Assembly (NCBI RefSeq): GCF_001548375.1
Contig: NZ_AP017295.1
Coordinates: 5,286,001-5,350,000 of the forward strand
DNA length: 64,000 nt
Direction of reading: 5' to 3'
Origin: Nostoc sp. NIES-3756
GTDB taxonomy: Bacteria; Cyanobacteriota; Cyanobacteriia; Cyanobacteriales; Nostocaceae
Numbering within the stretch: position 1 is the first letter of the stretch; every line of letters starts with the position of its first letter. The notes beneath the pieces were generated by a model that saw only the letters and a list, made by a program, of their open reading frames with translations, had not been told where the DNA came from and searched no databases. Position numbers and translations under genes: made by a program. Shown here piece after piece: positions 26,953 to 43,349 of this stretch.

Positions 26953-27060
26953 ATTACGAATTACGTTAGCGTAGCGGGGCGTAGCCCATTACGAATTACG
27001 AATTACGTTAGCGTAGCGGGGCGTAGCCCATTACGAATTACGAATTACGAATTACGAATT
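26953..27060. repeat. Tandem 42-bp repeat plus TACGAAT heptamers abutting the exporter stop codon
   Basis: A 42-bp unit with TTACGTTAGCGTAGCGGGGC and GTAGCCCATTACGAA occurs twice in tandem (second copy starts 42 bp after the first), then runs into four TACGAAT-type heptamers. 42 is a multiple of seven, so the large unit probably grew from the heptamer array. The TAA stop of the minus-strand exporter gene (27059-27061) is inside the array. Confidence 0.8.
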
Positions 27061-29932
27061 ACGCCATTTGTCGAGCCATCAACTGAGTAAATAAACCCTC
27101 AACGGCAACAAGTTCATCAAAACTACCTTGCTGGACAATCCGCCCCGATTGGAGTACATAAATACGGTGAGCATTGCGGATTGTACTGAGACGATGGGCG
27201 ATCGCTATTCGCGTAACTTGTAATTTTTCTAAATTCTGGCTGACTATCGCTTGAGTTTTATTATCTAAGGCACTGGTAGCTTCATCAAACAGGAGAATTT
27301 TTGGTTTTAAAGCCAAAGCACGGGCAATTAGCAACCTCTGTCTTTGTCCGGCAGAAATATTATTACCACCTTCGCTAATGACTGTGAACATTTGCATAGG
27401 CATAGCAGCAATATCATCAGCCAGTCCAGCTTGGCGTGCTGCGTCCCAAGCCTCATCTAAGGTGATTTGTGTACCGCAGGCAATATTCTCAAAAATTGAT
27501 GTAGAAATTAATTGCCCATTTTGTAAGACTACACCCAACTGGCGGCGGACTGCATCCACATCTAATCCCGCTAAGTCTTGATTATCGTAGTAGATTTTCC
27601 CAGCGCTGGGTGTTTCAAATCCTAGTAACAAGCGCAACAAAGTCGATTTACCACTTCCAGAAGGGCCGACAATAGCAATAAATTCTCCAGGCTGGGCAGA
27701 TATATTCACATCATCCAACGTTAACTGCCCATCTTGACGATAACTAAAATTGACATGGGCGATCGCAATCTTACCCTTAATCTGTCCTGGATCGCTTTTA
27801 GCTGCATCAACTTCGGGAATTGTGGCGAGGATTGGTTGGGTGCGTTTCCATTGGGGGATAATTGGCAATACTTCGGTGACTGTGTTACTCAAGTCTGTTG
27901 TACCTTTGAGGAAGTTACTTAAAGCTGCGTTAAAGGCTAAGTATGTTCCTAAAGATAGGGCAATTTCTCCAGAACCCTGTGCTGGTTGCATCAGTCCGGC
28001 GGTGAACCAGAAAATTAAGCCAGAAGTGATGTTGGGCATGACTGTATTAAAAATAGCTACAGTGTCCTCAATTTGTTGAGTGCTGAGTTCCAGCTTAATT
28101 TGCCGGTTGTAGTTTTGAATCCAAGAGGCAAAAGCTCGTTCTTGCGCGCCTGCAATATGCAGTTTAGAAATGCCGTTAATTATTTGTACTGTTTGTCCTA
28201 AGATATTGCCCTGTAATTCCAGCAGTCGGGGAACTTTACGTAGTAAAATTAAACTAGAGACAGTAGTGACACAAAGTATAACTACAGTAACAGCAACGGC
28301 GACCAAGGCTAATTTTGAGTTGTAGTAAAACAACTGTCCTAAATAAAATAGAGCAAATAAACTACTAATTAAATTAATTAGAGTTCTGCCACCCAGTTGA
28401 CGGCGGATATTACTAATTGAGGAAACGCGGGACTGAAGATCCCCAATTGTGTACTCACGGAAAAAGGACAAGGGTAAATTTAACAACCTATCCCACACGG
28501 CTGCTTGAGTGGCATCGTCTCCAGCAGTCTCAATCCGCAGCGTTGCAAAACCTTGGGCGAGGAGAAATAAACCTGTACCAATGCTGGCAATGAGTAAGCC
28601 AAAACCGATTTGTAGTAATAATATTTTGTTGCTATCAGGGATGGCATTATCAACAATCATACCTGTGCAGTAGGCTGTGAGCATTCCCAGAAATGTCACG
28701 CCGATGCCAGTACCAATAATTACGCCTAAATCCCTAGCACGACCTTTCAGGGCAAATAGAAATAAGTCCCAAGCTTTGAGGGCATGATTGGGCAAAGAGC
28801 GATAAAGTGTATAAGCAATTGGAGTGATTGTGGCCGCAATGCGCCGCGTTACTGGTACACGAGTTTGTTCAACAGGGTCAAGAAGTTGGTAACTATCGGG
28901 TGAAAGGGGTAAGAGGGCAACTGGTGTATCCTGTTCGGTATAGGCGACTAAAGGGCCACCATCTTTGTGCCACCATTTATCCGTTAGCCTGACTCGGCGT
29001 ATACGTATGCGTGAGGCTCTAGCGATCGCTTCTAATGGTTCTACAAAACGCTGATAGGCTTGTGGGTTCACAGGAGGGCGGATGTTTATCCCCAAAACTC
29101 TACCCACTGCACCAGCAGCAGTTAATAAAGGTGTATCTTCAACACCAAAGTCCTGTACTTGGGGATTTAAGGTAGAGGCTAATTCCCGTAAGGCTTTGTC
29201 TGTGGCTTGGTAATTATGGCGCTGGCGATCGCGTAATCGCACTACCTCTGCCTGGGCTGCTTGTTGGTCTAAAATATCAATACATCTGAGCAATTGAGTG
29301 TGCAGTTGTGATAATCCAGCCAGTAGAGTATCTACATTACTTAAATCCTGAGTCTGATAAACCGTGAGTTCTACATCAGCCGTAGATTCTAGCCATATAG
29401 ACTCACTCAAAGGAAAAATACCTGTGACTGGTAATTCTGGCATTCCTAAAAAGTGAGTAGTTGCTGTTTGCAGTTCTACCCAACACACCCCGGTTTGAGG
29501 CTGGCAATTCTCACCAGCATTAAGGCTAATCTTATCTTTGCCTGCTAATACCCTATCAATTTTGGGCGTAGGTACTTGAGCCAAAATAGTACCCAGTTGC
29601 ATCACCCAATTTTCCATCCAGGTTATTGCCCTAATATCTGCATTAGCTATTAATTGAGTAAAACATTCCCAATCTACTTGCAGTAATTTTGTTTCCCCAA
29701 TTGGGACTGCTAAAATTTGCCGATGCTGACCAGATAAGGGTAACGTGCCAAAAAATGCGCCCTCTGGTTGAACGCTGCCCAGATAACGGCGAGTTCCTTC
29801 TATAATCCCATTTTTCACCGTCACGGCAAATAAAGCGATCGCTCCAGACTGAACTACCCACAGTTTTTTCGGTTCATTCAGTAACATCGGCTCATTGCCG
29901 TTAACTAAATATATTTGACCGTATATAGCCAT
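27059..29932 (-). CDS. NHLM-type bacteriocin export ABC transporter, permease/ATPase with N-terminal non-peptidase domain
   Basis: A 957-residue export ABC protein, last gene of the lanthipeptide cluster. Residues about 1-150 look like a degenerate cyclic-nucleotide-binding-type beta domain (PKKLWVVQSGAIALFAV), then a helical linker, then a membrane domain with about six helices (400-660) and an ATPase (about 720-950). Walker A GPSGSGKST, Q-loop VVLQNGQLISTSIFENI, signature ISAGQRQRLLIARAL and Walker B KILLFDEATSALD are intact. There is no C39 peptidase. This layout is that of the second ABC protein in NHLM (nitrile hydratase/Nif11 leader microcin) systems. It lies 117 bp after the peptidase-type ABC gene. 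Its job beside the first exporter, as heteromeric partner or separate pump, is not clear. Confidence 0.9.
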   Translation of the reverse strand: MAIYGQIYLVNGNEPMLLNEPKKLWVVQSGAIALFAVTVKNGIIEGTRRYLGSVQPEGAFFGTLPLSGQHRQILAVPIGETKLLQVDWECFTQLIANADIRAITWMENWVMQLGTILAQVPTPKIDRVLAGKDKISLNAGENCQPQTGVCWVELQTATTHFLGMPELPVTGIFPLSESIWLESTADVELTVYQTQDLSNVDTLLAGLSQLHTQLLRCIDILDQQAAQAEVVRLRDRQRHNYQATDKALRELASTLNPQVQDFGVEDTPLLTAAGAVGRVLGINIRPPVNPQAYQRFVEPLEAIARASRIRIRRVRLTDKWWHKDGGPLVAYTEQDTPVALLPLSPDSYQLLDPVEQTRVPVTRRIAATITPIAYTLYRSLPNHALKAWDLFLFALKGRARDLGVIIGTGIGVTFLGMLTAYCTGMIVDNAIPDSNKILLLQIGFGLLIASIGTGLFLLAQGFATLRIETAGDDATQAAVWDRLLNLPLSFFREYTIGDLQSRVSSISNIRRQLGGRTLINLISSLFALFYLGQLFYYNSKLALVAVAVTVVILCVTTVSSLILLRKVPRLLELQGNILGQTVQIINGISKLHIAGAQERAFASWIQNYNRQIKLELSTQQIEDTVAIFNTVMPNITSGLIFWFTAGLMQPAQGSGEIALSLGTYLAFNAALSNFLKGTTDLSNTVTEVLPIIPQWKRTQPILATIPEVDAAKSDPGQIKGKIAIAHVNFSYRQDGQLTLDDVNISAQPGEFIAIVGPSGSGKSTLLRLLLGFETPSAGKIYYDNQDLAGLDVDAVRRQLGVVLQNGQLISTSIFENIACGTQITLDEAWDAARQAGLADDIAAMPMQMFTVISEGGNNISAGQRQRLLIARALALKPKILLFDEATSALDNKTQAIVSQNLEKLQVTRIAIAHRLSTIRNAHRIYVLQSGRIVQQGSFDELVAVEGLFTQLMARQMA

Positions 29933-30049
29933 ATAAGTACGTATAATTTTATGAGGCAGAAGGGCAAAAGGCAGAGGATATTAATCAATGACCAATGACC
30001 CTAAACAACCAACTTTATTTTTTTTATCAGTCATTTACTAAAAATTTAT

Positions 30050-32269
30050 TCACACAACGTCGCCTTCGGTACGAAGTAGTTGTGAATACACTCCTTCTTG
30101 ATGCCACAATTCTTGATGTCTACCGCGTTGTACTACTTCGCCTCGTTGCAAAACGATAATTTCATCACAATCGCGGATTGTACTTAAGCGATGAGCAACA
30201 ATAATGCAGGTACATCCTCGCCGCCTCAGATTCTCATCGATGATTTTTTCTGTTTCCGCATCCAAGGCGCTGGTAGCTTCATCGAGAATGAGGATGGAGG
30301 GGTTATTTACCAAAGCACGGGCAATTTCTAACCTCTGGCGTTGACCGTGACTTAAATTAGCCGCACCTTCGGCGAGTGTAGCATCATAACCACCGGGGAG
30401 GGAGAGAATTACATCTGCGATCGCTGCATCTTCGCAGGCTGCAATCAAGTTTCTTTCGGGAATTGTGCCATCCCACAGAGTTAAATTATCCCTCACAGTC
30501 CCGCCAAATAATTGGATATCTTGTTCCACCATCCCCACAGAGTTAATAATTAACTCATGGTTAACTTCGCTTCTGGCTTGACCATCAAAATAAATCTCCC
30601 CCTCCCAAGGTTGATAAACTCCGGCAATCAATTTAGCAATGGTAGACTTACCAGAACCACTACCCCCCACTAAAGCAACGCGCTGTCCGGGTTTAATTGA
30701 GAGGTGAAAATTTTCAATCACAGGCGGGTCGGTGGGACTGTAGCCAAAGGTGAGATTATGTAATTCGACGTAACCCTGTAATTTAGGTACAGCAGAGGCT
30801 ATATCTTGGGTGATTTCTTTCTTAGCTAGTTGTGGGTCGATGGGGTTGTTGAGAACATCATCTAAGCGGATGAGATTTCCTTCTAATTCTTGCAACGTAC
30901 CACCGAAATTGAGTAGGTTGTTGATTGGCTGTTGGAAACCCTGCATCAAACCTTGGAAAGCTACCAACATCCCAATGCTGAGATGTCCATCCATCACCCG
31001 AAAACCGCCGACGACTAACAACAGCATCAGCGAAAGACCGGATAATAATTTAGGTAATACCAGAAAGGTTTGATTAGTCACGCCTAATTCCTGTTGGGAA
31101 TTTAAGGCTTTGGTATAGTAACCAGACCAACGACCAAAGAAATCAGATTCTAAACCAGAAGCTTTAAGAGTTTCTATATTTTGTAGACCAGCAATAGATG
31201 CACCAGCCGCTTTACCATATTGTTGAATTAAGCGTTGGTTAGCATCTACACGCTGCCGGGAGATTTTTTGTAATGTAAAAATATTAATAGTAGCGAAGGC
31301 GACGACGATCGCAGTCAATAACCAATCATACTGCACCATGACTATGGCATAAAAAATTACCATCATGGCATCGATTAAGGTCGTCGCCAACTGTCCAGAA
31401 AGTACCTGCGCAACTTGATCATTAAGGTTGATTCGATTACTTATTTCTCCGGCGAAACGCTGGGAGTAAAAGCTTACAGGTAGGCGGAGAATATGCCAGA
31501 GGAAACGACTTGACATAGTAACAGCCAGCTTAATTTTCAGGCGGCGCAGATAACGTAAGCGTAGCAGCGTCAGCCATCCTTGAACTACAGTAGTGATGGC
31601 GATCGCTAGCAGTAGAGGACGTAACCAGTGCTGCCGCTCTTGAATTAAAATATCATCGACAAAGATTTGGCTAAATACAGGTATTATCAAACCGATAATT
31701 GTCAGAAAAAACCCGGCAATTATGGCATAAACCAAAGCACCCAGCGACCCTTGCAGGCGATTCCATAGAGAAGAGATAATGCTGGGTTTATTTCCCCCTT
31801 TGACAAAATCGGGGCCTGGTGACATCACCAAAACCACCCCGGTATATGCTTGGTCAAATTCTTGGATAGAAATAGTACGCGGCCCGGAGGTGGGGTCATT
31901 TATATATACCTGAGAACCAGAAAAGCCTTCAACAACTACAAAGTGATTGAAGTTCCAAAACACAATATAGGGGGGAGGAAGCTTTTGTAGTTCTTCTAAA
32001 TCTCTCCTGTAGCCTGTAGCTTGCAAGCCATAATTTTTGGCAGCTTTTACCATGTAGGAAGCCTTGCTACCATTGCGAGAAACGCCACACTCCCGACGCA
32101 GTTCTGGCAATGGTACATACTGACCGTAATAACTAAGAATAATGCCAACAGCCGCAGCGCCGCATTCCACAGCTTCCATTTGCAACAGCGTTGGTGTCTT
32201 GACGCGCTTACCTCGGACTGAAAATAATTTTTGCAGATATGTAACTAATGGAAATTTAGTAAATGCCAC
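30050..32269 (-). CDS. NHLM-type bacteriocin export ABC transporter with C39 leader peptidase
   Basis: A 739-residue bifunctional exporter that should cut leader peptides after Gly-Gly and pump the product out. The C39 domain (about 24-145) keeps C36 in MEAVECGAAA, H109 in NFNHFVVVEGF and D125 in INDPTSG. Six membrane helices occupy about 170-460, and the ATPase has GGSGSGKST, signature ANLSHGQRQRLEIARAL and Walker B ILILDEATSALD. Its start overlaps the end of the HlyD-type gene by 14 bp, so the two are translationally coupled. The double-glycine sites of the two Nif11-type precursors upstream are its obvious substrates. Confidence 0.95.
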   Translation of the reverse strand: MAFTKFPLVTYLQKLFSVRGKRVKTPTLLQMEAVECGAAAVGIILSYYGQYVPLPELRRECGVSRNGSKASYMVKAAKNYGLQATGYRRDLEELQKLPPPYIVFWNFNHFVVVEGFSGSQVYINDPTSGPRTISIQEFDQAYTGVVLVMSPGPDFVKGGNKPSIISSLWNRLQGSLGALVYAIIAGFFLTIIGLIIPVFSQIFVDDILIQERQHWLRPLLLAIAITTVVQGWLTLLRLRYLRRLKIKLAVTMSSRFLWHILRLPVSFYSQRFAGEISNRINLNDQVAQVLSGQLATTLIDAMMVIFYAIVMVQYDWLLTAIVVAFATINIFTLQKISRQRVDANQRLIQQYGKAAGASIAGLQNIETLKASGLESDFFGRWSGYYTKALNSQQELGVTNQTFLVLPKLLSGLSLMLLLVVGGFRVMDGHLSIGMLVAFQGLMQGFQQPINNLLNFGGTLQELEGNLIRLDDVLNNPIDPQLAKKEITQDIASAVPKLQGYVELHNLTFGYSPTDPPVIENFHLSIKPGQRVALVGGSGSGKSTIAKLIAGVYQPWEGEIYFDGQARSEVNHELIINSVGMVEQDIQLFGGTVRDNLTLWDGTIPERNLIAACEDAAIADVILSLPGGYDATLAEGAANLSHGQRQRLEIARALVNNPSILILDEATSALDAETEKIIDENLRRRGCTCIIVAHRLSTIRDCDEIIVLQRGEVVQRGRHQELWHQEGVYSQLLRTEGDVV

Positions 32270-33872
32270 TGACAGACCTCAAAATTGGTAAAACAAAGGT
32301 AATAGGCGCTCGTTCTTCGACAGTTATACGTACCACTGTGGTAGTTCCAGAGGAAATTTTTAGTTGCGGCCCGGTTGAAGAAGACCACTTATAGCCACTG
32401 GCAGTTTTAGGGTTTAATTCTAGATTTGCCAATACCTGCATGACACCATCTTGCTTATTGGATACTAATCCTTCAGCTAATTGCGGATTACCTACTTCTT
32501 TGGCTACAGCTTCTTTAGTAATCGGGAATGAGGAAACATTTGCCACATTGCCGACGATACCGCCAAAGCGTTCCCGTTTCACGGTTTGGGGTGTAATTTG
32601 TACCTGCATTCCTGGCTGAATTTTCTTACCATCGGCGATCGCAAAATAACTGATACCTACCAACTTGCTATTAGGATTTTCTGCATCTATACTGGCTAAA
32701 CGAGTTCCCGCAGAGATAACTTCACCAGGATTAACAGTAATTTCTAAAATTCTGCCAGAGAATTGACTGATAATTTGGCTATTTTTTTGCACCTCTAATT
32801 CTAATTGAGCAATATTCCTTTTAACTTCTTGAATTTCCTTAGTGCGTTGGGTTGCTTCTTGTAAATTTTGTTTAGCAGTATTGGCTTCTTGACTATCTAA
32901 AGTTTTTAAATCAGCTTGTAATTTGGCGATTTGATTTAAGTTATCTAGATAAGATTGCTCTGTGTTAGTTTCATCAACTTCTAGCTTTTGCAACTGGGAA
33001 CGAACACTAGCAATTTCATTCAAGTGATTAATATATCTTTCTTGACTCTCATTTTCTTTAACTTCTAATTCTTTTAACTGAGTTTCTAATTGAGCTATAT
33101 CCTCTACCTTTCGTAAATATTCATTCTGAGCCTGCACAAATGTATCATCAGAAATAACTTTCTGTTCCAAGAGCGATCGCCGACTTTCAACTCTTTGATT
33201 TAGTAGAGGTAATTGTGCTTTTGCTGCCTGAATACGTTGCTGAAAACTTTGACTTTGTTGGCGTAATGATTCACGATTTGTTTTCTGCAAAATAGGAACT
33301 AAAGCTTCTAACTCTTTTAGTCTTTGTTGCAGTTGTAGACGTTGTTTGTTAATTGATTCTTTGCTTTTAGCTCTTAAAACTGGAGTTAGAGTTTGCAATT
33401 CCCGAATTTGTTGTTGAGCGTTTTGCCGTTGTTGTTCAATCGTTCTTTGTTGTTGAATATCTTCGTGACCTTGTAAAGAACTTACGGCTTGGTCTTGTGC
33501 TTGTAAAGTTGCTAATTTAAGCTTTTCCTGTTGCAATTGTTTTTGTATTTTTGATTGGTCAAGAACTGCTAATACATCACCTTTTTTAACCTTGTCACCT
33601 ACCTTAAAGTTTAGTTGCACTAATTGCCCAGAACTATCTGATTGTACTGCAATCACTTTGCTAGGATAAACCAGTACACCTTGACCTTCAATAGTGATAG
33701 GGATACGTCCAAAAACACTCCACATTAAAGCAGATGATACTAACAAACCCAAAGATGTGAGAGGCAGCCAACTCCGGGGGCTAACAACTTGTATTAGTTG
33801 GTCTAATCTTTCCGGCGAGGACAATCGCTCCAGAGATTCTTTTCTAAAAATATTACGCTTTTGAGCTAACAT
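32256..33872 (-). CDS. HlyD family secretion adaptor of NHLM system
   Basis: A 538-residue membrane fusion protein linking the ABC exporters to the cell envelope. A single membrane helix sits at about 37-55 (SWLPLTSLGLLVSSALMWSV), followed by the first biotinyl/lipoyl half (VIAVQSDSSGQLVQLNFKVGDKVKKGDVLAVLD, split about 80-112), a long coiled coil of Gln-rich heptads (about 112-385), and the second half with GRILEITVNPGEVISAGTRLASI. The C-terminal beta domain is typical for NHLM secretion proteins. It overlaps the next exporter gene by 14 bp. Confidence 0.93.
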   Translation of the reverse strand: MLAQKRNIFRKESLERLSSPERLDQLIQVVSPRSWLPLTSLGLLVSSALMWSVFGRIPITIEGQGVLVYPSKVIAVQSDSSGQLVQLNFKVGDKVKKGDVLAVLDQSKIQKQLQQEKLKLATLQAQDQAVSSLQGHEDIQQQRTIEQQRQNAQQQIRELQTLTPVLRAKSKESINKQRLQLQQRLKELEALVPILQKTNRESLRQQSQSFQQRIQAAKAQLPLLNQRVESRRSLLEQKVISDDTFVQAQNEYLRKVEDIAQLETQLKELEVKENESQERYINHLNEIASVRSQLQKLEVDETNTEQSYLDNLNQIAKLQADLKTLDSQEANTAKQNLQEATQRTKEIQEVKRNIAQLELEVQKNSQIISQFSGRILEITVNPGEVISAGTRLASIDAENPNSKLVGISYFAIADGKKIQPGMQVQITPQTVKRERFGGIVGNVANVSSFPITKEAVAKEVGNPQLAEGLVSNKQDGVMQVLANLELNPKTASGYKWSSSTGPQLKISSGTTTVVRITVEERAPITFVLPILRSVSGIY

Positions 33873-33981: not shown

Positions 33982-34860
33982 TTAAATCAACTTTAAAGTT
34001 CCCCGGCTTTCTTCAACTGCATTCAAGTAAGGCAACCAATGATTTTTTACAAATGATACCATCGACTGATGAAAAGATGGTACAGTCCAAATTGCATTAG
34101 GAATATTTGCTTTAATTTGTCGTTCACAAGCTTCCGCATAGAGGATAATAATCCGCCCCATCTTTTGTAAATCTTCTCTGACAAAACTACAGGTGTAGCG
34201 AATCGTATGTGGGGCAATGCGATGATTAATTAACCACCCTACTACCTGTCCTTGATAACGTAATCCTATACTATTTAAAGGTTCCAAATTGTCTTCATAT
34301 TTAAAGGGAACTAAATCTTCAGGAATCCAAGGTTGAGTTTGCTGCTGTTGTTGAATTATTTGCCGTTCTTCTGGGGTAATTTCTTCCCAAGGAAAAATAC
34401 TATATGAACTAGGAAGACGACTGTACCTCCTAATCCAATTTGCCTCGATGATTCTCTTTGCTTCCCCTTTGCAAACCAATGTGCGAGTTTCTGGCGGTGT
34501 CCAGTTGCATTTTTCTATAACACGTTCTAAAGCCACAGTCGTTGGTTTACCTGTGGTGTAATTTAGCTGAAGTATTTTACAACCTCTATCCTGTAACTCT
34601 GCTTGTATGCGAGTCAGTAAAGCAGTACCAATTCCCTTATTCCGTTCTTCTATAGCTACAAATATGGAAAAGATGACGACGATACGATCTTGAACCATTT
34701 GTGCCAGCACTAAACCAACAGGTTGCTGATTGTTTGTAGCGCCAATTGCCACAATAGTATTGTCTGTATCTAGAATGTGGAGTAAATATTTATAACTTGG
34801 AAAAGTCATCCATTCATATGCAGATGCGGTCGAGTTATCAAGGATGTTTAATTCGTACAT
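33982..34860 (-). CDS. Two-domain GNAT N-acyltransferase of the lanthipeptide cluster
   Basis: A 292-residue GNAT protein. The acyl-CoA loop is clear in the N-terminal half: EERNKGIGTALLTRI, with R73-x-x-G76-x-G78/A80, followed by the beta-5 strand and VALERVIEKCNW. The C-terminal half (about 180-290) looks like a second, degenerate GNAT fold with no clear loop. GNAT enzymes of Nif11/nitrile-hydratase-leader RiPP clusters are known to attach fatty acyl groups to lysine-type side chains (selidamide/nostolysamide work), which makes lipidation of the product a reasonable inference. The core has a single Lys, at its first position. Start ATG at 34860 has a good GAGGT ribosome site. It lies 61 bp after the hydroxylase gene. 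Confidence 0.82.
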   Translation of the reverse strand: MYELNILDNSTASAYEWMTFPSYKYLLHILDTDNTIVAIGATNNQQPVGLVLAQMVQDRIVVIFSIFVAIEERNKGIGTALLTRIQAELQDRGCKILQLNYTTGKPTTVALERVIEKCNWTPPETRTLVCKGEAKRIIEANWIRRYSRLPSSYSIFPWEEITPEERQIIQQQQQTQPWIPEDLVPFKYEDNLEPLNSIGLRYQGQVVGWLINHRIAPHTIRYTCSFVREDLQKMGRIIILYAEACERQIKANIPNAIWTVPSFHQSMVSFVKNHWLPYLNAVEESRGTLKLI

Positions 34861-35455: not shown

Positions 35456-35618
35456 ATATTTTTGTAGATTAGTAGATAATGAAGATATATCTGCACAAAA
35501 TATGCAAAAACTATTTGTATGAGAGTTCAGTTCTCAATGGAACTATTACCTTATTCAATGAGGAACAGCCAAGAGAATAAATCCCTTGGCAATGTCTAAT
35601 CTCATTTAGAGGTTATTC

Positions 35619-35758
35619 ATAAAGTAAAAATAAAATTGCTGTAGGGTGTGTTAGGCGCACATTTTGGATATGATGTCTCACTAAAAAAATGACTTAAGCG
35701 CCTAACGCACCGTATTATTGCTAACGCCTTAACACACCCTACTTAAGATTTACTTTAT
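35619..35758. repeat. 140-bp palindromic element between precursor and tailoring genes
   Basis: Terminal arms ATAAAGTAAA (35619-35628) and TTTACTTTAT (35749-35758) are perfect inverted repeats. Inside are GTAGGGTGTGTTA (35641-35653) against TAACACACCCTAC (35730-35742), and GTTAGGCGC (35650-35658) against GCGCCTAAC (35698-35706). No coding capacity. The structure is that of a MITE-like element, and its RNA could form a very stable stem in the transcript between the precursor genes and the hydroxylase gene. Confidence 0.75.
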
Positions 35759-35778
35759 AAGTAGTCTCTTAGCAAACA

Positions 35779-35838: not shown

Positions 35839-36150
35839 CTAACAAGCGCTACCCCAGCAGCTACTAACGAACACACAGAAAGTAAACCTAGTGTCAGAAG
35901 GACACTCACGACGCTTACCGCCAGCTACAGCTTCCAAATCAGCTTCGCTTAATTCAGCATTGGCACGAGAACGTTGTTGGCTGATGAAAGTATTTACATC
36001 TTCGGTAGTGAAAGAGTAACCATTTTCTTCACCTAGACGTACTGCTGTTTTTGCAAAGCTTTCTGGGCTATCAGCCGCACCCAGTTGTGCTTGCAATTCT
36101 TGGCTATTTTGAATCAAGGTGTAAAAGTTTTGCAGATTTGAGTTGTTCAT
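35839..36150 (-). CDS. Nif11-type leader lanthipeptide precursor, copy 1
   Basis: A 103-residue precursor peptide. Residues 1-52 form a Nif11-like leader (NLQNFYTLIQNSQELQAQLG, then GEENGYSFTTEDV), followed by an acidic stretch ELSEADLEAVA and the double glycine G77-G78. The 25-residue core, K79-C103, opens with KRREC and holds Cys at core positions 5, 14, 20 and 25, Ser/Thr at 7, 9, 12, 18, 19 and 23, a single Asp at 8 and a Trp at 21. That content fits up to four (methyl)lanthionine rings made by the LanM of this cluster. It differs from copy 2 only at residue 34 (Lys here, Glu there). Its ribosome site is poor (AAAAATAT), unlike copy 2. Confidence 0.95.
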   Translation of the reverse strand: MNNSNLQNFYTLIQNSQELQAQLGAADSPESFAKTAVRLGEENGYSFTTEDVNTFISQQRSRANAELSEADLEAVAGGKRRECPSDTRFTFCVFVSSCWGSAC

Positions 36151-36187
36151 GGTACTATATTTTTAGTGATGATTTGAGTCTGATCAA

Positions 36188-36307: not shown

Positions 36308-36619
36308 TTAGCAAGCGCTACCCCAACAGCTACTAACAAACACACAGAAAGTAAACCTAGTGTCAGAAGGACACTCACGACGCTTACCACCAGCTACAGC
36401 TTCCAAATCAGCTTCGCTTAATTCAGCATTAGCGCGAGAACGTTGCTGGCTGATGAAAGTATTCACATCTTCGGTGGTGAAAGAGTAACCATTTTCTTCA
36501 CCTAAACGCACTGCTGTTTCTGCGAAGCTTTCTGGGCTATCAGCCGCACCCAGTTGTGCTTGCAATTCTTGGCTATTTTGAATCAAGGTGTAGAAGTTTT
36601 GTAGATTTGAGTTGTTCAT
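36308..36619 (-). CDS. Nif11-type leader lanthipeptide precursor, copy 2
   Basis: A 103-residue precursor with the same Nif11-type leader, Gly77-Gly78 and identical 25-residue core as copy 1; the only difference is Glu34 in place of Lys34. At DNA level several synonymous changes separate the copies, so the duplication is not brand new and the core has been kept by selection or gene conversion. The start is preceded by AAAGGA seven bases upstream, a good ribosome site. This copy is the first gene after a promoter-like site (36718-36746) and an intrinsic terminator of the upstream unit, so it heads the precursor-tailoring-export transcript. Confidence 0.95.
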   Translation of the reverse strand: MNNSNLQNFYTLIQNSQELQAQLGAADSPESFAETAVRLGEENGYSFTTEDVNTFISQQRSRANAELSEADLEAVAGGKRRECPSDTRFTFCVFVSSCWGSAC

Positions 36620-36654
36620 GATACTATCCTTTGTGATGATTTGAGTTTTTCGAG

Positions 36655-36703: not shown

Positions 36704-36717
36704 TTCCGAATAATCTT

Positions 36718-36746
36718 ATAATATTCAATTTTTTTGGTAGTCACAA
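36718..36746 (-). promoter_or_regulatory. Candidate sigma-70-type promoter of the precursor unit
   Basis: On the minus strand TTGTGA (36746-36741) and TATTAT (36723-36718) are separated by exactly 17 bp. Transcription would begin near 36710, giving a leader of about 90 nt that contains the hairpin at 36655-36703. Position just after the terminator at 36841 supports it. Confidence 0.45.
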
Positions 36747-36840
36747 TCACATATTTTTAGCTAACAAATCCCCATTTTTTAGGTTCAAAGAAAAATATAT
36801 TTTTTGATTATTTTCAATCTTAATAATGCTAATTTTAAAC

Positions 36841-36877
36841 AAAAAAAGGCAACAAATCTGTTTCCAGATTTGTGCCT
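36841..36877 (-). terminator. Strong intrinsic terminator after the 349-aa gene
   Basis: Minus-strand stem with arms AGGCACAAATCTG and CAGATTTGTTGCCT (one bulged base) around a GAAA loop, followed by seven T. It lies 40 bp after the stop of the 349-residue gene and separates the regulator/LanM unit from the precursor unit. Confidence 0.82.
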
Positions 36878-36916
36878 AGATATCATGGGGTATGTAGTTT
36901 AAATATGGCTAGATTA

Positions 36917-37966
36917 TTAGTTATTCAATAAAGGTAAAAGCTGTTTCGGAAAATCTTGCCGAAGAGCCGCATCATTCACAATTTCTTGCTTCAATAGGTG
37001 AGCGTTAGGAGAATGTAGTTCCTCACATATTCCTATTAAATCAATTGCAGTACAGTACCAAAGTATTGGTGTTTTGCCGCGTCCGGCTGCTAAAAATTGA
37101 GAAATCATTTCTATTGCAATGCTAAGATGGCTATTGAATAAAGCCTGCTTCATGCGTAACCAGCCATAAGCTGAGGGATACATCTCTAAATCATGATCAA
37201 ATTTTAAGTTGATGTGATTAACAATTATTTGCCATAGTTCTTGTCCTTCCTGGCGGTTTCTCCCAGCGAAGATTAGAGCAATTTCATTAACTATTAAACT
37301 AAAGGTAAGAGAAATAACTTCTGGTGGTAAATTGCTTAAAAGATTTGTATCCCATGTTACTGGAAAGGGTAAACTTATTGGTTTACCTTGCAAATAAGAT
37401 AGCAGTTGACTACCTAATTCAATAGCACTCTTAAATCTTTGACCCCTCGCTTCAGAACGGACTAAATTTTGTACAAGATGAAGACGGTGTGCAAACAAGA
37501 CTTTATAACCATATTCTGTTTCTAAAACCGCATCTATAATGATGGCTTCTGTCATGTGTAACCAAGCTTGAGCAGAGTCTCCACGGCGATAATCAAGGTA
37601 AGCTTCTGCTGCTGCTTGGAAAGATTGATATAACAAGTTAACTTCAGAAGATACTTGATTAATATCCCAGTTACTGCGGACTTTCTCCATTAACTGTTCA
37701 GCCTTGGCAATGTCACCTTGACGAGCGGTATTTAAAGCTTGCGATCGCTCTTGATTAATCCGGTTTAGTAATAATTTTTCTCTAACTGATAAGCGTTTAT
37801 CAATTAAACTGAATAACTCATAACTAATTAGTTGGTTAATTTTCTGGCTATCTTGATCTGGCGTAGTTTCATTGGATTTTAACTGACCTAGTTTATAATT
37901 AGCTAAAGCATCATCAAGTATTTGCTGATATAAGCCTAATTTGTTACTATTTTTAACAGTAATCAT
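36917..37966 (-). CDS. Unrecognised helical (TPR-like) protein of the lanthipeptide cluster
   Basis: A 349-residue, mostly alpha-helical soluble protein without membrane segments or signal peptide. Pairs of helices such as ALNTARQGDIAKAEQLMEKV and QSFQAAAEAYLDYRRGDSAQ, split by short turns, have the look of TPR-like repeats. No catalytic motif is visible. I start at the ATG at 37966; a TTG 21 bp upstream is possible. It sits between the 195-residue gene and the terminator that closes the LanM unit, so it is cotranscribed with lanM. A scaffold, immunity or regulatory role are all open; I do not recognise the family. Confidence 0.6.
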   Translation of the reverse strand: MITVKNSNKLGLYQQILDDALANYKLGQLKSNETTPDQDSQKINQLISYELFSLIDKRLSVREKLLLNRINQERSQALNTARQGDIAKAEQLMEKVRSNWDINQVSSEVNLLYQSFQAAAEAYLDYRRGDSAQAWLHMTEAIIIDAVLETEYGYKVLFAHRLHLVQNLVRSEARGQRFKSAIELGSQLLSYLQGKPISLPFPVTWDTNLLSNLPPEVISLTFSLIVNEIALIFAGRNRQEGQELWQIIVNHINLKFDHDLEMYPSAYGWLRMKQALFNSHLSIAIEMISQFLAAGRGKTPILWYCTAIDLIGICEELHSPNAHLLKQEIVNDAALRQDFPKQLLPLLNN

Positions 37967-38184
37967 AATATTGGTATGAGAATGCAAGTATAGTTGTTAA
38001 TTTTCAAACTGATCAGGATGGTTTTAGTATCGCCTAAATTGATCAGTTATAACAATTCCATATTTTTCGCTCTCAAGTCACCAATTTTTGGATAAGCTGG
38101 CTTATCTAAACCAACTAAAAATAAAAATATACTATGAAGCTATAAATCACTAATGATAGGTTAGGTTAATCAACTTATATCAAC

Positions 38185-38772
38185 CTACTGATGCTTAAAA
38201 GAATTTTGTTTAACTAACCAAGCCTCTAATGAGCTTCTACACTTTTGAGCAGCCCTTGCTTTTGTTTTGTCATCAATTGCTTCTGCTGGAAACAGATTCA
38301 CTATTTTAGTTGTGAGAATAAACTTTTTTCCCCGTTTCACTACGATAGGAATAGATGTATCATGAACTTCCCAAATATTTAAAGGTCGAGACTGACGTAG
38401 GGTAGATTCGTTCCATTCCATAAGTTGGGAGTTGGGGAGTAGCTGAAGGTCTTGGTAAGAGCGATTAACCTTAACAGCAATCTCCTTGAAATTAGACATC
38501 TCCGCTTCTAACTGGCTAGCCAAAGTGTTGATTTTGTTTGCTAAAATCTCCAATTCTTCAATGCCTTGGGTAACTGTTTCTTGTAATATCTCTTGTTGTT
38601 GCTGCTGTTTATGGGCTAACAACTCTTGTCCATATTTTTCCAATTCAGTCACCTCTGATTCTAATTGAGCGATCGCCTCATCAATGCAAACAGTTTTGGG
38701 TTGGGTAAGGAGTTTGTATTTAAAAGATTTAATGGCTGTGCTGGCAAGAAGCGTCAAGCTGGAATAGACCAT
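38185..38772 (-). CDS. Unrecognised coiled-coil protein of the lanthipeptide cluster
   Basis: A 195-residue protein with a strong coiled coil at about 30-110 (IAQLESEVTELEKYGQELL, a QQQQQEILQE run and LANKINTLASQLEAEMSN). The C-terminal 80 residues are a compact basic domain containing WEVHDTSIPIVVKRGKKFIL. No membrane segment after the chosen start. The frame can be read up to a TTG at 38859, but the extra 29 residues have no ribosome site, so I use the ATG at 38772. It lies between lanM and the 349-residue gene. Function unknown; coiled coil suggests a partner protein. Confidence 0.55.
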   Translation of the reverse strand: MVYSSLTLLASTAIKSFKYKLLTQPKTVCIDEAIAQLESEVTELEKYGQELLAHKQQQQQEILQETVTQGIEELEILANKINTLASQLEAEMSNFKEIAVKVNRSYQDLQLLPNSQLMEWNESTLRQSRPLNIWEVHDTSIPIVVKRGKKFILTTKIVNLFPAEAIDDKTKARAAQKCRSSLEAWLVKQNSFKHQ

Positions 38773-38911
38773 ATTTATTTCTACAGAAATTTCATCAAAG
38801 CGTGTGAGCAATAGCGACACCCATATCTTGAAACAAAAAACAAACTCCCAGTTCCCCAATTTTGCGAAATTTTAGCCTCTGTTTAGCATTAAAGGCAAGC
38901 GAACTCTGAAT

Positions 38912-41900
38912 CTATTGCCACAGCAACACGGAAGGTAAAACTTCTGGGTAAGCTAATCGCAGTAGTTGATAACCAATCCCGGCTGCACCTTGGAAGAAAC
39001 AAGGATGAAAAATTGAAGGTGGTAAGTTACCAAAATATTGATAGTTCCCTATTTGCTTTGCTTGCTGTACTGACATACTTGCTAGTTCTAAGGCGTGTTG
39101 ATACCACTGGGGATGAGAAAGTTTCTGCGCGGCTACTAATAAAATCTCACTACGGCCGAAATTACCACAGCAGATTTGATCTATGTTTTGCAAACCTGTC
39201 TTGTGGGTAGTCTGCAAAGCAACTTCGATATCAGCCAAAACTTGCTCTGAATGTTCAATTGATAAACCCCCCAATCGTCCTAAAGCAATACCAGGAGCGC
39301 CATGACACCAAGTAGACCAAAAAACAGGTGCGGCGGTTGGGTCATTGATGGGAAGAATTTCTTGCCAGTTTCCTGGATTGGGGAAGAAGAAACTATTTTC
39401 GTATGCGATCGCCTGATGTGCGGCTTCTAAATAGGTGCGATCGCCAGTTACACTATAGAGGCGCAACAGTGCATAGGCAATGCCAGCCGCACCATGAGAG
39501 TAACCAGTTAAAGGTTTTTTAGACGTATTTTTTAATACGTAAGCAGCATGGCAATATTTGAGTAAATGCTGACCACATTCTCTGGCTCGTTGCAAAGTTT
39601 CTGCATCTGGTTTAACTTCATACAAAGCCAACAGTCCTAAAATTGCGCCAGCCGCACCACCTACAATATCAAATTTGCTATCTTGAGCGATCGCTGTGGG
39701 TGTAATAAGGTTTACAGTTCGCTGTGCATCTTCTAGAAGTTGCGGTAATTCCAAAAACTGACCAATTTTTACTAGAGAATAAATGATGGAAGGTAATCCC
39801 GTAGCACCACCGATACCCATCTTCTCAACTTCGGTGTGACCTGCTTGGATAGATTTTTGTAATAATTGGATACTCCTCAAAGCTAAATCACCGAATTGGG
39901 TATTGCCAGTACAACGAGCGAAAGCAGCGAGAAACAAAGCGATGCCACAATTACCATCGTATAAACTGTTACTTAAAGGCTGAAGCTGATAGCGCTCTGT
40001 AGCGAGGTCAAAATTAAGACCAATCCAACTAAGACTACCATCATTACCTGCGATCGCACGTTTAGCGATTTCACGAGCAATATTTTCGGCTTCCTGCTCC
40101 AATTGTGCTGATGTCAATACAGATACATCTTCTGTAATATCTCTAGCATCAATCGTTTCAGCCTGCATATTTTTGGCAACTCTAGCATAGAAAGCTAACT
40201 GAATTATCCCTACTTGCACAGCCAAATCTGCTTCGCTGAGTCTCTGCAATCGAGTAAGAACATCGTCGTAGCTAGGTTGTTGAAAATACCCAATCAGCTT
40301 TTGTCCTTCATTTAAAGTTAAAGTATCACTACCCGTGACAGCGTTAAAGTAAGGAACATCCAGTAGTTCTACCGCCCTCAACTCTGCACCCAAAACCTGC
40401 CATGCTAAAGGCTTTGTTTTGGGAAATAGAAAAGCTCTACTGAGAAAGTCAACTTCTATACTCCAATCCCGTCCATCGCTTAAGAATTGTGGAGATAACG
40501 CATTACCCAATATTCTGCCGTAAATTCTCGTAGGACGGAAAATAAATCTTACCTGCTGTGAGCGAAAAGCAGACAAAATACTCTCAGGTTTCAAAAGCAC
40601 TTCTCTATATCTCACAAAGAAGCGATACATTTGCTCAAAACCACTGACCAAATAATCTATATAATCGTTCGGTGATAGCGGCATTCCATTCAACATAGGA
40701 ATATTTTTTTGCAAAGGTCGGTTCATCTTCTCAAACCCTTGCTGCATATCATCCGTATTGATAAACTTCCACACAGGTATAGGGATAGGTGTTGGTTGGC
40801 TTTCAACACTGCCTAAACCGCTCAGATCAAAAGCCACAGACTTATCAGCGCTAAAATCCCACATCGGTAACATTCCTGTGGTCAAGACTGAATCAGAGAG
40901 TTGTTCATTGGCTACAGAAGTTGCTGTTTGTTCTAGTAAATCTTCCATTGCTTTGGCTTGGTGGTGCATGACTGTTTCCATATCAATCAAAACCAAATGT
41001 TCACCACAAGCGATTAAATTTTCATAATGACAATCACTAGCACTTAATAAATATAGTAGGCACAGTAACATACCTGCTCTTATATAAAAACGCTGTGCGG
41101 CTGCTTCATCTTTGCATGGTTGTTGTTCTACATATTCCACCCAACCATAGTTATGACGGCTTAATATTTTCAGGATTTTAAAGTCTAATTGAGGTGTTTC
41201 TAATCCTTGAGATTTTGTTAGCTCAAAATTTTGATTACACCACTCTAAAAATTGACAGTATGTGACTTCTAAATCTAAATTTTTTGGCTTATATATAAGT
41301 TTTAACCCAGAGGCAAAAGTTAAGGAGATGACTGAACGGTTCTGATTGTGCAAATCAGATAATCCAGATTGAATCTCAATAACTTTTCCAAGTTCGTAGT
41401 CATCATCTTGGGAAAATAACTGTTTTATATCATACAAATCTGCATTTAATCTTTCTAAAAATTGTGCTGTTGCTTCAACCCAAAAGTCTATTGTAGTGGC
41501 GATGAATCTACTCAATACAGGATATTTTTTAAACAACCCCAACAATCCATCAGCTAGCAATTTATTAACAAAATTATTGTATTGTTCTTTGCTATCAACT
41601 GATTGATTCTTTTTAATAATGAGACTTAGTAAATTTTTACCTAAAGGACGAGAGTGAGAAAATTCATAATCTAGGGAATTGGCAGAAATATTAACTAATC
41701 TTTGCAGCAACGATTGCTCTAATTTAAGGTAAGCAGATTCTGTAATTAAACTTAGTGGTAACGTATCTGAAGATAATAAGTTACAACCTAAACGCCGGAG
41801 CAGTTTCTGCCTAGCTACAAAACATAAAGGCAGTAATACATCTTCAAAAGGATAGGGTTGATTTGGGTCTATCGGCTTAGAATATATATTTTTCCAGCTA

Positions 41901-42232
41901 AATCCTGAAACTGTTTTGATGATTTCATTGAGAGTATTTGCCCATTCTGGCAAAGGTTGATGATTAAATATGGACTGTGTTCCTAATACATGATTGACAC
42001 ATTCAATATTCCATCCTTCCCACTCTATACGTTTTTGAAATTGTTCCCAATTACCTTGAGCCATAACTTTACACCACCGAGCTAGGCGTGTATTTAATTC
42101 TTCTACATTCAGTTGAGTATTTGCATCTGGGAGATAATCGTTATTTAAGTGTTCAAATAAGAATGTGGCTTTACCTACAATTTCTTCAATATCAGAGTGA
42201 TTGATTGTTGTCTGAGATGGAATAGCAATCAT
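38912..42232 (-). CDS. Class II lanthipeptide synthetase LanM, three-Cys zinc site
   Basis: A 1106-residue bifunctional enzyme that phosphorylates and eliminates Ser/Thr and then adds Cys thiols to make lanthionine rings. The N-terminal dehydratase (about 150-640) keeps kinase-like marks: SGLKLIYKPKNLDLEV with the ATP-site Lys, SASDCHYENLIA near 400 and LVLIDMETVMHH near 415. The C-terminal LanC-like cyclase (about 740-1100) has a zinc site of C976 (WCHGAPGIALG), C1021 and C1022 (QICCGNFGR). The CCG in place of the usual CHG is the mark of the ProcM-type group, which handles varied substrates. The enzyme is expected to modify the core of both precursors. An AraC-type regulator lies 178 bp upstream on the same strand. 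Confidence 0.96.
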   Translation of the reverse strand: MIAIPSQTTINHSDIEEIVGKATFLFEHLNNDYLPDANTQLNVEELNTRLARWCKVMAQGNWEQFQKRIEWEGWNIECVNHVLGTQSIFNHQPLPEWANTLNEIIKTVSGFSWKNIYSKPIDPNQPYPFEDVLLPLCFVARQKLLRRLGCNLLSSDTLPLSLITESAYLKLEQSLLQRLVNISANSLDYEFSHSRPLGKNLLSLIIKKNQSVDSKEQYNNFVNKLLADGLLGLFKKYPVLSRFIATTIDFWVEATAQFLERLNADLYDIKQLFSQDDDYELGKVIEIQSGLSDLHNQNRSVISLTFASGLKLIYKPKNLDLEVTYCQFLEWCNQNFELTKSQGLETPQLDFKILKILSRHNYGWVEYVEQQPCKDEAAAQRFYIRAGMLLCLLYLLSASDCHYENLIACGEHLVLIDMETVMHHQAKAMEDLLEQTATSVANEQLSDSVLTTGMLPMWDFSADKSVAFDLSGLGSVESQPTPIPIPVWKFINTDDMQQGFEKMNRPLQKNIPMLNGMPLSPNDYIDYLVSGFEQMYRFFVRYREVLLKPESILSAFRSQQVRFIFRPTRIYGRILGNALSPQFLSDGRDWSIEVDFLSRAFLFPKTKPLAWQVLGAELRAVELLDVPYFNAVTGSDTLTLNEGQKLIGYFQQPSYDDVLTRLQRLSEADLAVQVGIIQLAFYARVAKNMQAETIDARDITEDVSVLTSAQLEQEAENIAREIAKRAIAGNDGSLSWIGLNFDLATERYQLQPLSNSLYDGNCGIALFLAAFARCTGNTQFGDLALRSIQLLQKSIQAGHTEVEKMGIGGATGLPSIIYSLVKIGQFLELPQLLEDAQRTVNLITPTAIAQDSKFDIVGGAAGAILGLLALYEVKPDAETLQRARECGQHLLKYCHAAYVLKNTSKKPLTGYSHGAAGIAYALLRLYSVTGDRTYLEAAHQAIAYENSFFFPNPGNWQEILPINDPTAAPVFWSTWCHGAPGIALGRLGGLSIEHSEQVLADIEVALQTTHKTGLQNIDQICCGNFGRSEILLVAAQKLSHPQWYQHALELASMSVQQAKQIGNYQYFGNLPPSIFHPCFFQGAAGIGYQLLRLAYPEVLPSVLLWQ

Positions 42233-42410
42233 GAACTAAATTCTCCAGTATGCCTAATTAATGTGATGGAATTAATCGAATTTATTGTCAAAAGCTCAAC
42301 ATCTAATTTTGAAGATGTACTAGTGAACTTTTAAGATATGAGTAAAGAAGCCGATAATTATTAGTCTCTTGTAAAAGCCTCTTTTTATGTTTCTGTGCGA
42401 ACCACAAAAA

Positions 42411-43349
42411 CTATTTGTAAAAATTCATCTCTCCAACAATTTTATGCAAAAAATTCTGTGGTGCTTGAATTTCCTGATGCTGTTCTTTTCTCCATGCTTG
42501 AGGAGTGGTTTTATGATACTGGCGGAATTGGCGGAAAAAATGTCCTTCGTACTGATAGCCTACAGCTTCGGCAATATGAGTTATGGAATGGTTTGTTTCT
42601 AATAGTAAGTTGCGTGCTGCCTGCATCCGCCTTTCAACAATCCAATGATTTACAGGTTTACCTGTACAACGTCGTACTAAATCAGTGAGATAGGCTGATG
42701 AGTATCCAACGAACTGAGCTACATCACATAAGGTAATCGATTGATGATAGTTTGCCTCAATAAACTCAAAAACAGCCCTCAATTGAGCATGGCTAGAAAC
42801 TCGCAGTTTGGTATCTGCAATACTCATTGCTTCAGTACAGAGTGGTATTGTGACTGATTGCTGTTCCGTATTTCTAGACTCAAAAGCTAGATTTTGTATG
42901 GAATGGTTGAGGTTGTTATTAGTCTTATCTGACTGGGGTTGGCAAATATTTCGCAACAGAATACAGCAACACTCGGCATTTTTATACCCCATATAAGTGA
43001 TGTTGATTTCCAGTAAACACTTCTGACCTTTCTGAGTTTGATATGAACCTTCAAAATATAAAGAGCCTTGTTGTTGAAGTTGTATCCAATACTTTGACCA
43101 AACTTCTATCAAACTTTCTAAGTTTAAGTCTTGTAGAGTCATGGAAAGTAATTGCTGAGGAGACTGCTCTAAAAATCTGCACGCAGCATCATTTGCATAA
43201 AGTATCTGTTTATCTGCCCTTACCCATATAACTGGATATGCCGCACCTCCAGGTAAGAGCTTGCTTATATGGAGCTTGTCTTGTGATTGCCAGTTTATTG
43301 GGGTATTATCTTGTTCTAGGGTACATTGGGTTGAAAACTTATTAATCAT
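42411..43349 (-). CDS. AraC family regulator with N-terminal PAS domain
   Basis: A 312-residue transcription factor. A PAS-like sensor at about 30-135 (YPVIWVRADKQILYANDAACRFL, PQQLLSMTLQDL) precedes a linker and a C-terminal pair of helix-turn-helix motifs at about 205-300 (ESITLCDVAQFVGYSSAYLTDLVRR is close to the first; ITHIAEAVGYQYEGHFFRQFRQYHKTTP is the family-signature second, each given here in part). It is the first gene of the lanthipeptide region and points the same way as lanM, so it is probably the local activator; the PAS domain may read redox state or a small ligand. Such PAS-AraC genes often sit beside cyanobacterial RiPP and secretion genes. Confidence 0.85.
   Translation of the reverse strand: MINKFSTQCTLEQDNTPINWQSQDKLHISKLLPGGAAYPVIWVRADKQILYANDAACRFLEQSPQQLLSMTLQDLNLESLIEVWSKYWIQLQQQGSLYFEGSYQTQKGQKCLLEINITYMGYKNAECCCILLRNICQPQSDKTNNNLNHSIQNLAFESRNTEQQSVTIPLCTEAMSIADTKLRVSSHAQLRAVFEFIEANYHQSITLCDVAQFVGYSSAYLTDLVRRCTGKPVNHWIVERRMQAARNLLLETNHSITHIAEAVGYQYEGHFFRQFRQYHKTTPQAWRKEQHQEIQAPQNFLHKIVGEMNFYK

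What the first reader, a model, noticed from the sequence alone, without database searches (positions are those of the whole stretch)
27059..43349. Complete Nif11-leader class II lanthipeptide cluster with an unusual tailoring set
All parts of a RiPP pathway lie together on the minus strand: PAS-AraC regulator, LanM, two unknown proteins, twin precursors, an AspH-type hydroxylase, a GNAT acyltransferase, HlyD adaptor, C39 ABC exporter and a second NHLM ABC exporter. The individual families are known; the combination of LanM + AspH-type beta-hydroxylase + GNAT around one conserved core is one that I cannot match to a described product. Inference: a lipidated, Asp-hydroxylated, multi-ring lanthipeptide.
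Basis: partly seen in the sequence, partly recalled or inferred. Interest (0 to 1): 0.85.

Follow-up and report, generated by a model that had tools for sequence, protein, structure and literature searches.

The report
Lipid-tagged ring peptide gene cluster
A cyanobacterial gene cluster for a ribosomally made, ring-bearing peptide of the nostolysamide family carries an extra enzyme that had been read as an aspartate hydroxylase but more likely puts a hydroxyl group on the fatty acid attached to the peptide.

Summary
In detail: a complete Nif11-leader class II lanthipeptide cluster (27059-43349, minus strand) with twin precursors, LanM, PF05118 hydroxylase, GNAT and two NHLM exporters. That it matches no described product is wrong: the 78-aa leader, the 25-aa core with K1, C5, T9, T12, C14, S18, C20, S23, C25, the three-Cys LanM and the GNAT fit nostolysamide (NpuA, PMC13060382). 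The extra gene is the hydroxylase. 'Asp-hydroxylated' is not supported: 2 of 4 nostolysamide-type genomes with an intact hydroxylase have cores without Asp or Asn; a relative with only a remnant of the enzyme keeps Asp8; two human AspH residues that contact the substrate Asp are replaced. In 388 genomes, 7 of 21 short-clade hydroxylase loci lie by the GNAT and 7 of the other 14 by NRPS genes, several of hassallidin type; hassallidin carries an alpha,beta-dihydroxy acyl chain. Best reading: a nostolysamide variant whose Lys1-linked fatty acid is 2-hydroxylated. Against it: no fatty-acyl-AMP ligase near the gene in seven genomes. No chemistry was tested.

The parts
42411..43349 (-). PAS-AraC family regulator
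   Evidence: HTH_18 74.9 bits, PAS 26.4 bits; homologues upstream of LanM in L002 (471 bits), L005, L016, L125
38912..42232 (-). LanM, class II lanthipeptide synthetase; C976, C1021, C1022 at the Zn site (three Cys, as in the ProcM clade)
   Evidence: TIGR03897 1000.9 bits, cut-off 304; Cys positions; three-Cys rule from PMC13060382
38185..38859 (-). U224, no Pfam/NCBIfam match; also in the clusters L002 and L005; alone at the same site in genome G527
36917..37987 (-). U356, unnamed family; predicted all-helical; recurs near LanM genes
   Evidence: no library match; search, maps, model
36308..36619 (-). precursor 1: 78-aa Nif11 leader ending VAGG + 25-aa core KRRECPSDTRFTFCVFVSSCWGSAC
35839..36150 (-). 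precursor 2: same core, leader differs by one residue
34922..35455 (-). PF05118 hydroxylase (Fe(II)/2OG); proposed fatty-acyl 2-hydroxylase
   Evidence: PF05118 178 bits; OlsC model 136.8 and LpxO model 99 bits, both far below cut-off; residues; model pLDDT 88.7
33982..34860 (-). GNAT acyltransferase of the NpuN type (292 aa; P-loop R73..G76.G78; D182, H264 by my count)
   Evidence: NpuN description PMC13060382
32256..33872 (-). HlyD-type adaptor (NHLM_micro_HlyD)
   Evidence: 428.6 bits
30050..32269 (-). C39 peptidase-ABC exporter (expected to cut after Gly-Gly and export)
   Evidence: 1181 bits; Peptidase_C39 124 bits
27059..29932 (-). second NHLM ABC exporter
   Evidence: 983 bits; weak cNMP-like N-terminal stretch, 18.6 bits, below cut-off

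Best explanation
A nostolysamide-family (selidamide-type) lanthipeptide pathway with one added step. LanM dehydrates and cyclises the core; by analogy with nostolysamide C the rings are C5-T9, T12-C25, C14-S18, C20-S23. The GNAT puts a fatty acyl group on the side chain of Lys1, the only Lys of the core. The PF05118 enzyme hydroxylates the fatty acyl group (most likely C2), before or after its transfer to Lys1, not Asp8. The C39 domain removes the leader at GG and the NHLM exporters release the product. Shown: genes, core layout, LanM metal-site residues, hydroxylase catalytic residues, linkage of hydroxylase to GNAT. Inferred: ring pattern, Lys1 acylation, acyl hydroxylation.
For: Core/leader layout as in NpuA. 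The two NCBIfam models that match the hydroxylase are acyl hydroxylases, OlsC 136.8 and LpxO 99 bits, though below cut-off. Fe and 2OG residues are kept (H95, H140, D136, S84, H106, R150), while human AspH's contacts to the substrate Asp carboxylate (Q627, K666) and to the substrate backbone (R686) are V48, G82, V102 in the window; all other GNAT-linked short copies agree except I48 in L127 (mapping mine). A Phyllobacterium protein over the OlsC cut-off (530 of 450) has T, M, V there. Of 4 nostolysamide-type genomes with an intact hydroxylase, 2 have cores without D/N; of 5 without one, 4 have D/N cores. Nostoc FACHB-152 shows only residues 132-177 of the enzyme but keeps Asp8. L125 (G450) lacks Lys1, GNAT and hydroxylase together, yet keeps an Asp. 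In 388 genomes 7 of 21 short-clade loci lie by the GNAT and 7 of the other 14 by NRPS genes; one has the letters of a protein named for hassallidin biosynthesis. Hassallidin A has an alpha,beta-dihydroxy acyl chain (passage, PMC10300848), and the gene lies next to a 3-oxoacyl-ACP reductase in Aulosira and in 4 of the 14 loci.
Against: Both acyl-hydroxylase models are far below cut-off, and human AspH aligns at 115.5 bits. R104, the equivalent of AspH R688, also tied to the Asp side chain, is kept. No FAAL-like gene lies near the short-clade gene in 7 genomes (none in four; in three only on other contigs or more than 170 kb away). 7 of the 14 non-GNAT loci show no partner that I recognised. In phaeornamide a 2OG enzyme hydroxylates the acylated ornithine itself (PMC9505594). 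Balticidins, hassallidin relatives, carry beta-hydroxy-Tyr, so the NRPS-side enzyme may have an amino-acid target. F11, W21 and G22 are shared by all four hydroxylase-positive cores, so another residue is not excluded. Acylation changed nostolysamide activity little.
Confidence: 0.53

Rival explanations
1. The hydroxylase acts on the Lys1 side chain (hydroxylysine), which the GNAT then acylates, as PhaI makes hydroxyornithine before acylation in phaeornamide.
For: Same gene pairing (2OG hydroxylase + GNAT) in a described selidamide (PMC9505594 passages); K1 is the window core's only Lys; L125 lacks K1, GNAT and hydroxylase together.
Against: L007 has an intact hydroxylase but Gln1, and L013 has Arg1, with no PF12640 (peptide-arginase-type) gene found in either genome; both do have other Lys. 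The short clade also sits in hassallidin-type NRPS clusters, where the passage read names no hydroxylysine.
Confidence: 0.22
2. The hydroxylase makes beta-hydroxy-Asp at core position 8.
For: Pfam family name PF05118; human AspH domain aligns at 115.5 bits; Asp8 present in the window; AspH R688 equivalent kept.
Against: Two of four intact-hydroxylase nostolysamide-type genomes have no Asp/Asn in the core; an Asp is kept where the enzyme is a remnant (L002) or absent (L125); substrate-Asp contacts Q627 and K666 replaced.
Confidence: 0.12
3. The hydroxylase acts on another core residue (e.g. F11, W21, Arg, Pro6) or is not active on this product.
For: PF05118 substrates are varied (recalled: proline hydroxylases); F11, W21 and G22 are shared by all four hydroxylase-positive cores; the gene is not found in 4 of 9 related clusters and is a remnant in a fifth, so it is dispensable.
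Against: The same residues are kept in most of the cores without the enzyme, so they do not track it; the linkage to the GNAT would be unexplained; active-site residues are intact.
Confidence: 0.13

Closest known systems
Nostolysamides (npu cluster, Nostoc punctiforme PCC 73102; PMC13060382)
   Same: 78-aa Nif11 leader, GG site, 25-aa core with the ring-forming residues at the same positions, ProcM-clade LanM with three Cys, NpuN-type GNAT, C39 exporter. 9 of the 12 core positions named in the text are the same (K1, C5, T9, T12, C14, S18, C20, S23, C25).
   Different: Core positions 3, 4, 24 (R, E, A instead of K, S, K); twin precursors with one core; a PF05118 hydroxylase, of which word searches of the main text found no mention (figures and supplement not held); U356 and U224, not seen in the parts read.
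Selidamides phaeornamide and kamptornamide (passages of PMC9505594 and PMC12703449)
   Same: GNAT that acylates a side-chain amine; phaeornamide also has a LanM and a 2OG hydroxylase.
   Different: Phaeornamide has a NHLP precursor; both products are acylated on ornithine; no PF12640 gene found in the window's genome (that peptide arginases fall in PF12640 is recalled).
Hassallidin-type NRPS clusters (Aulosira laxa NIES-50 plasmid, L153 and relatives)
   Same: Close relative of the hydroxylase (64.4% identity over 163 aa); lipopeptide product.
   Different: Non-ribosomal peptide; no NpuN-like GNAT or Nif11 precursor scored in L152-L155, L157, L158, L163.
OlsC / LpxO acyl hydroxylases
   Same: The only two NCBIfam models that match the hydroxylase; an OlsC also lacks AspH's Q627, K666 and R686.
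   Different: 136.8 against cut-off 450 and 99 against 500 bits; longer proteins.

Membership tests
class II lanthipeptide | LanM with dehydratase and LanC-like domains | tested here: met
   TIGR03897 1000.9 bits (cut-off 304); DUF4135 437, LANC_like 221 bits
nostolysamide family | 78-aa Nif11 leader with GG site and core with C5, T9, T12, C14, S18, C20, S23, C25 | tested here: met
   against the text of PMC13060382
nostolysamide family | ProcM-clade LanM, three Cys at the Zn site | tested here: met
   C976, C1021, C1022; rule; no LanM tree was built
nostolysamide family | NpuN-type GNAT in the cluster | tested here: inconclusive
   292 aa, GNAT domain, P-loop, D182 and H264 as described for NpuN; NpuN's own sequence was not compared
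selidamide | fatty acyl on a Lys or (hydroxy)Orn side chain | not testable with these tools
   needs mass spectrometry; K1 is the only Lys of the core
proteusin | nitrile-hydratase-like leader | tested here: not met
   leader matches the Nif11 models, no NHLP model
Asp/Asn beta-hydroxylase (AspH) | Fe and 2OG binding residues | tested here: met
   H95, H140, D136, S84, H106, R150
Asp/Asn beta-hydroxylase (AspH) | residues that bind the substrate Asp carboxylate (Q627, K666 in human AspH) | tested here: not met
   V48, G82; R688, also tied to the Asp side chain, is kept as R104
Asp/Asn beta-hydroxylase (AspH) | an Asp or Asn in the substrate | tested here: inconclusive
   present in the window core (D8), absent from the cores of 2 of 4 hydroxylase-positive nostolysamide-type genomes
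OlsC / LpxO | score over the NCBIfam cut-off | tested here: not met
   136.8 of 450, 99 of 500 bits
works like an acyl 2-hydroxylase | hydroxylation at C2 of an acyl chain | not testable with these tools
   inferred from linkage to the GNAT and to hassallidin-type NRPS genes

The most novel reading that the evidence does not exclude
A small PF05118 clade is a transferable lipid-tailoring module: the same fatty-acyl alpha-hydroxylase is plugged into ribosomal (GNAT, nostolysamide-type) and non-ribosomal (hassallidin-type) lipopeptide pathways, so this cluster makes a lanthipeptide carrying a 2-hydroxy fatty amide on Lys1, a RiPP modification that none of the listings of my paper searches showed.
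Probability: 0.48. Interest if true: 0.68.

Novelty: new variant of a known kind. Interest (0 to 1): 0.46.

Why it matters
It places the cluster in a named family with a proposed ring pattern, a known acyl site and a working E. coli expression system (PMC13060382), so the one new gene can be tested directly. If the hydroxylase acts on the lipid, 'aspartyl/asparaginyl beta-hydroxylase' labels in cyanobacterial lipopeptide clusters are misleading, and RiPP and NRPS lipopeptides share a lipid-hydroxylating part. The nostolysamide authors could not say what the acyl group is for and suggest that activity may depend on its precise nature; this gene would set that nature in the clusters that carry it.

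Tried and rejected
Asp8 hydroxylation: rejected as best reading. Proteusin: leader is Nif11. Peptide arginase in this pathway: PF12640 not found in the window's genome nor in 7 of the 8 other nostolysamide-type genomes; found only in G340. FAAL near the short-clade hydroxylase: not found in 7 genomes, which weakens the lipid argument; the seven NRPS proteins scanned gave C, A and PCP domains, three also methyltransferase and thioesterase. A second LanM or NpuN-like GNAT in the genome: none. Literature: ten searches listed no paper on a PF05118 enzyme in a lanthipeptide pathway, but searches showed only 8 of 48, 12 of 105 and 12 of 1,776 papers, and the primary selidamide and hassallidin papers were not held: a weak negative. 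Fold comparison could not be run.

Full report
What is there. The stretch 27059-43349 holds eleven intact genes on the minus strand, in transcription order: PAS-AraC regulator, LanM, U224, U356, two precursors, PF05118 hydroxylase, GNAT, HlyD, C39-ABC exporter, second NHLM exporter. The window lies in a 7.0-Mb genome; the neighbours look like PstS and UbiD on one side and PurC on the other (translations; names recalled). The two precursor genes are 95% identical over 300 nt with one core. The genome has one LanM and one NpuN-like GNAT and two PF05118 genes.

What family it belongs to. The nostolysamide preprint (PMC13060382; abstract, discussion section and passages read) describes NpuA with a 78-residue Nif11 leader and a 25-residue core, most likely rings C5-T9, T12-C25, C14-S18 and C20-S23, a ProcM-clade LanM with three Cys at zinc, and a tandem GNAT that acylates Lys1. 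The window has a 78-residue Nif11 leader, a 25-residue core with those ring residues at the same positions, C976/C1021/C1022 in LanM, and a 292-residue GNAT with the P-loop motif and D182/H264 by my count, near the D182/H265 that the preprint discusses. NpuN and NpuA were not compared letter by letter, as their sequences were not in the text. The product should be a tetracyclic nostolysamide analogue acylated on Lys1, its only Lys. The published activity (membrane-directed, antibacterial and antifungal) is the natural expectation, not tested here.

Relatives. A profile of seven precursors (A2) gives full-length matches above 100 bits in 6 of 388 order genomes and 5 of 217 family genomes, 9 different genomes; the next best scores are 74.6 and 71.1 bits. 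Gene maps: GNAT in 8 of 9 loci; intact hydroxylase in 4 (window, L004, L007, L013); a remnant in L002; none found in L005, L016, L125 and L126 (L126 is a 9.7-kb contig). Of the 29 named GNAT loci, eight carry a hydroxylase above 200 bits (L004, L007, L010, L011, L012, L013, L014, L023); weaker matches lie in L002 (50), L020 (82) and L028 (181). Of the 20 regions (L124 is the same place as L002, L125 has no GNAT), one more does (L127). The gap to the GNAT is under 1.6 kb in all of these but L010, where it is 5.8 kb.

What the hydroxylase probably does not do. The cores beside an intact hydroxylase are KRRECPSDTRFTFCVFVSSCWGSAC (window), KARGFTVCILSKDCWGSVC (L004, which has a second precursor), QASGFTVCVATKKCWGSIC (L007) and RAKGFTFCVTKSKCWGSVC (L013); the last two have no Asp or Asn. 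Four of the five cores without an intact hydroxylase do. In Nostoc sp. FACHB-152 (L002), whose core keeps Asp8, the only clear match to the enzyme is to residues 132-177. Three precursors of Aliinostoc sp. HNIBRCY26 (P0243, P0245, P0247), whose genome also holds close GNAT and hydroxylase relatives, have D8, D5 and none; they are linked only by the same listed contig length and were not counted. In human AspH the Fe ligands are H679 and H725, D721 holds a water, and S668, H690 and R735 hold 2OG (PMC13168262 passages); Q627 and K666 bind the substrate Asp carboxylate and R686 the backbone next to it (PMC6817910 passages). By my mapping on the alignment the window keeps the first six and has V48, G82 and V102 for the last three. 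The other GNAT-linked short copies agree except I48 in L127; L127's second copy has T, H, I, and the longer homologue of L028 T, F, V. A Phyllobacterium protein over the OlsC cut-off (530 of 450 bits) has T, M, V. R104, equivalent to AspH R688, which that paper also ties to the Asp side chain, is kept in every row, so the loss of Asp contacts is not total.

What it probably does. A profile of the hydroxylase (A3) matches in 94 of 388 genomes at E <= 1e-30; 21 loci in 21 genomes stand out at 222-334 bits, the rest score 191 or less and mostly lie in longer frames. Seven of the 21 are GNAT loci (G000, G107, G120, G243, G267, G347, G362). The 14 others were fetched: seven lie beside NRPS genes, seven show no partner that I recognised, one of them on 3.3 kb. 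One NRPS-side copy (G265) holds a stop. Five NRPS neighbours match the NRPS beside the hydroxylase of Aulosira laxa NIES-50 at 60-70% identity over more than 3000 residues, a sixth at 72% over 1550, the seventh only at 35% over 1451. A review says that NIES-50 has a plasmid-borne hassallidin cluster and that hassallidin A bears an alpha,beta-dihydroxytetradecanoic acid (PMC10300848 passages); a source names P0225 'involved in Hassallidin biosynthesis' (organism cut off after 'Pla'; Planktothrix is my reading), and its letters are those of the L153 copy. A 3-oxoacyl-ACP reductase lies next to the hydroxylase in Aulosira and in four of the 14 loci. Among six fetched loci of longer homologues, L166 has FAAL-like proteins on both sides (428-448 bits to fatty-acid-AMP ligase models, below their cut-offs) and L167 looks the same by motif. 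The common factor is an acyl chain, so 2-hydroxylation of the chain is the economical reading. Against it: no FAAL-like gene near the short-clade gene in seven NRPS-side genomes; acyl-hydroxylase models below cut-off; beta-hydroxy-Tyr in balticidins; phaeornamide, where a 2OG enzyme paired with a GNAT acts on the acylated residue (PMC9505594 passages); and residues F11, W21 and G22, shared by all four hydroxylase-positive cores.

The acyl site. In L125 (G450) the core starts RSCP, without Lys1, and the locus has neither GNAT nor hydroxylase, though LanM and exporters are there; the rest of that genome was not searched for them. In L126 (G340) the core has Arg1 and no Lys, and this is the only one of nine genomes with a PF12640 gene, on another contig that carries NHLM exporter genes and may be the other half of the cluster; that PF12640 holds the peptide arginases is recalled. 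Both fit a GNAT that needs a side-chain amine near the start of the core. L007 (Gln1) and L013 (Arg1, no PF12640 gene found) do not fit simply.

History. In the near relative G527 the same chromosomal site lacks the cluster but keeps U224 and its surroundings (733 bp, 90%) between PurC and UbiD; four other same-genus genomes show no U224 within the 16 kb fetched beside PurC. This looks like loss around a leftover gene, though U224 as an older resident is not excluded.

Tree. Exchange between contexts is possible and not proved.

Verdict. Real, complete, and a new variant of nostolysamide. The interest rests on one untested enzyme step.

Noticed in passing
window 36917-37987; L208-L216: U356 is an unnamed family found in 11 of 388 genomes, predicted all-helical (pLDDT 79.6, four-sequence alignment). 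LanM matches lie in 4 of the 9 other loci fetched (L208, L209, L210, L215) and NHLM-type exporter matches in L210, L211, L214 and L216: a candidate RiPP-associated family.
   Followed up: partly
L222 4847-5579 (genome G527): Site of the cluster in a near relative: cluster absent, U224 left at 90% DNA identity between PurC and UbiD.
   Followed up: partly
L126 and L221 (genome G340): Nostolysamide-type core with Arg1 and no Lys, in the only one of nine genomes with a PF12640 gene, which lies by NHLM exporter genes on another contig.
   Followed up: partly
L218 20001-20576 (Aulosira laxa NIES-50 plasmid): The hydroxylase of this hassallidin-type cluster has Tyr at the place of the first Fe-binding His.
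   Followed up: no
L166, L167 (genomes G190, G273): A longer PF05118 hydroxylase (279 bits to the OlsC model in L166) lies between two FAAL-like genes (model matches in L166; motif only in L167).
   Followed up: no
window about 35606-35771: Short element with inverted ends between precursor 2 and the hydroxylase; similar pieces in Nostoc plasmids and 49 bp at the empty site of G527: looks like a MITE.
   Followed up: no
one search list, e.g. G104, G121, G136; hits H42-H44: NpuN-like GNAT matches inside frames of about 700 aa; three plasmid matches are annotated TIGR03032 family protein.
   Followed up: no
L004: MAG labelled Tatlockia (Legionellaceae) carries this cyanobacterial-type cluster; the same coordinates appear in G243, placed in the window's order, so the label is probably wrong.
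   Followed up: partly
L020 (Prochloron didemni P4): NpuN-like GNAT with a Lys-rich Nif11-type precursor, U356 and a weak hydroxylase match in a tunicate symbiont.
   Followed up: no
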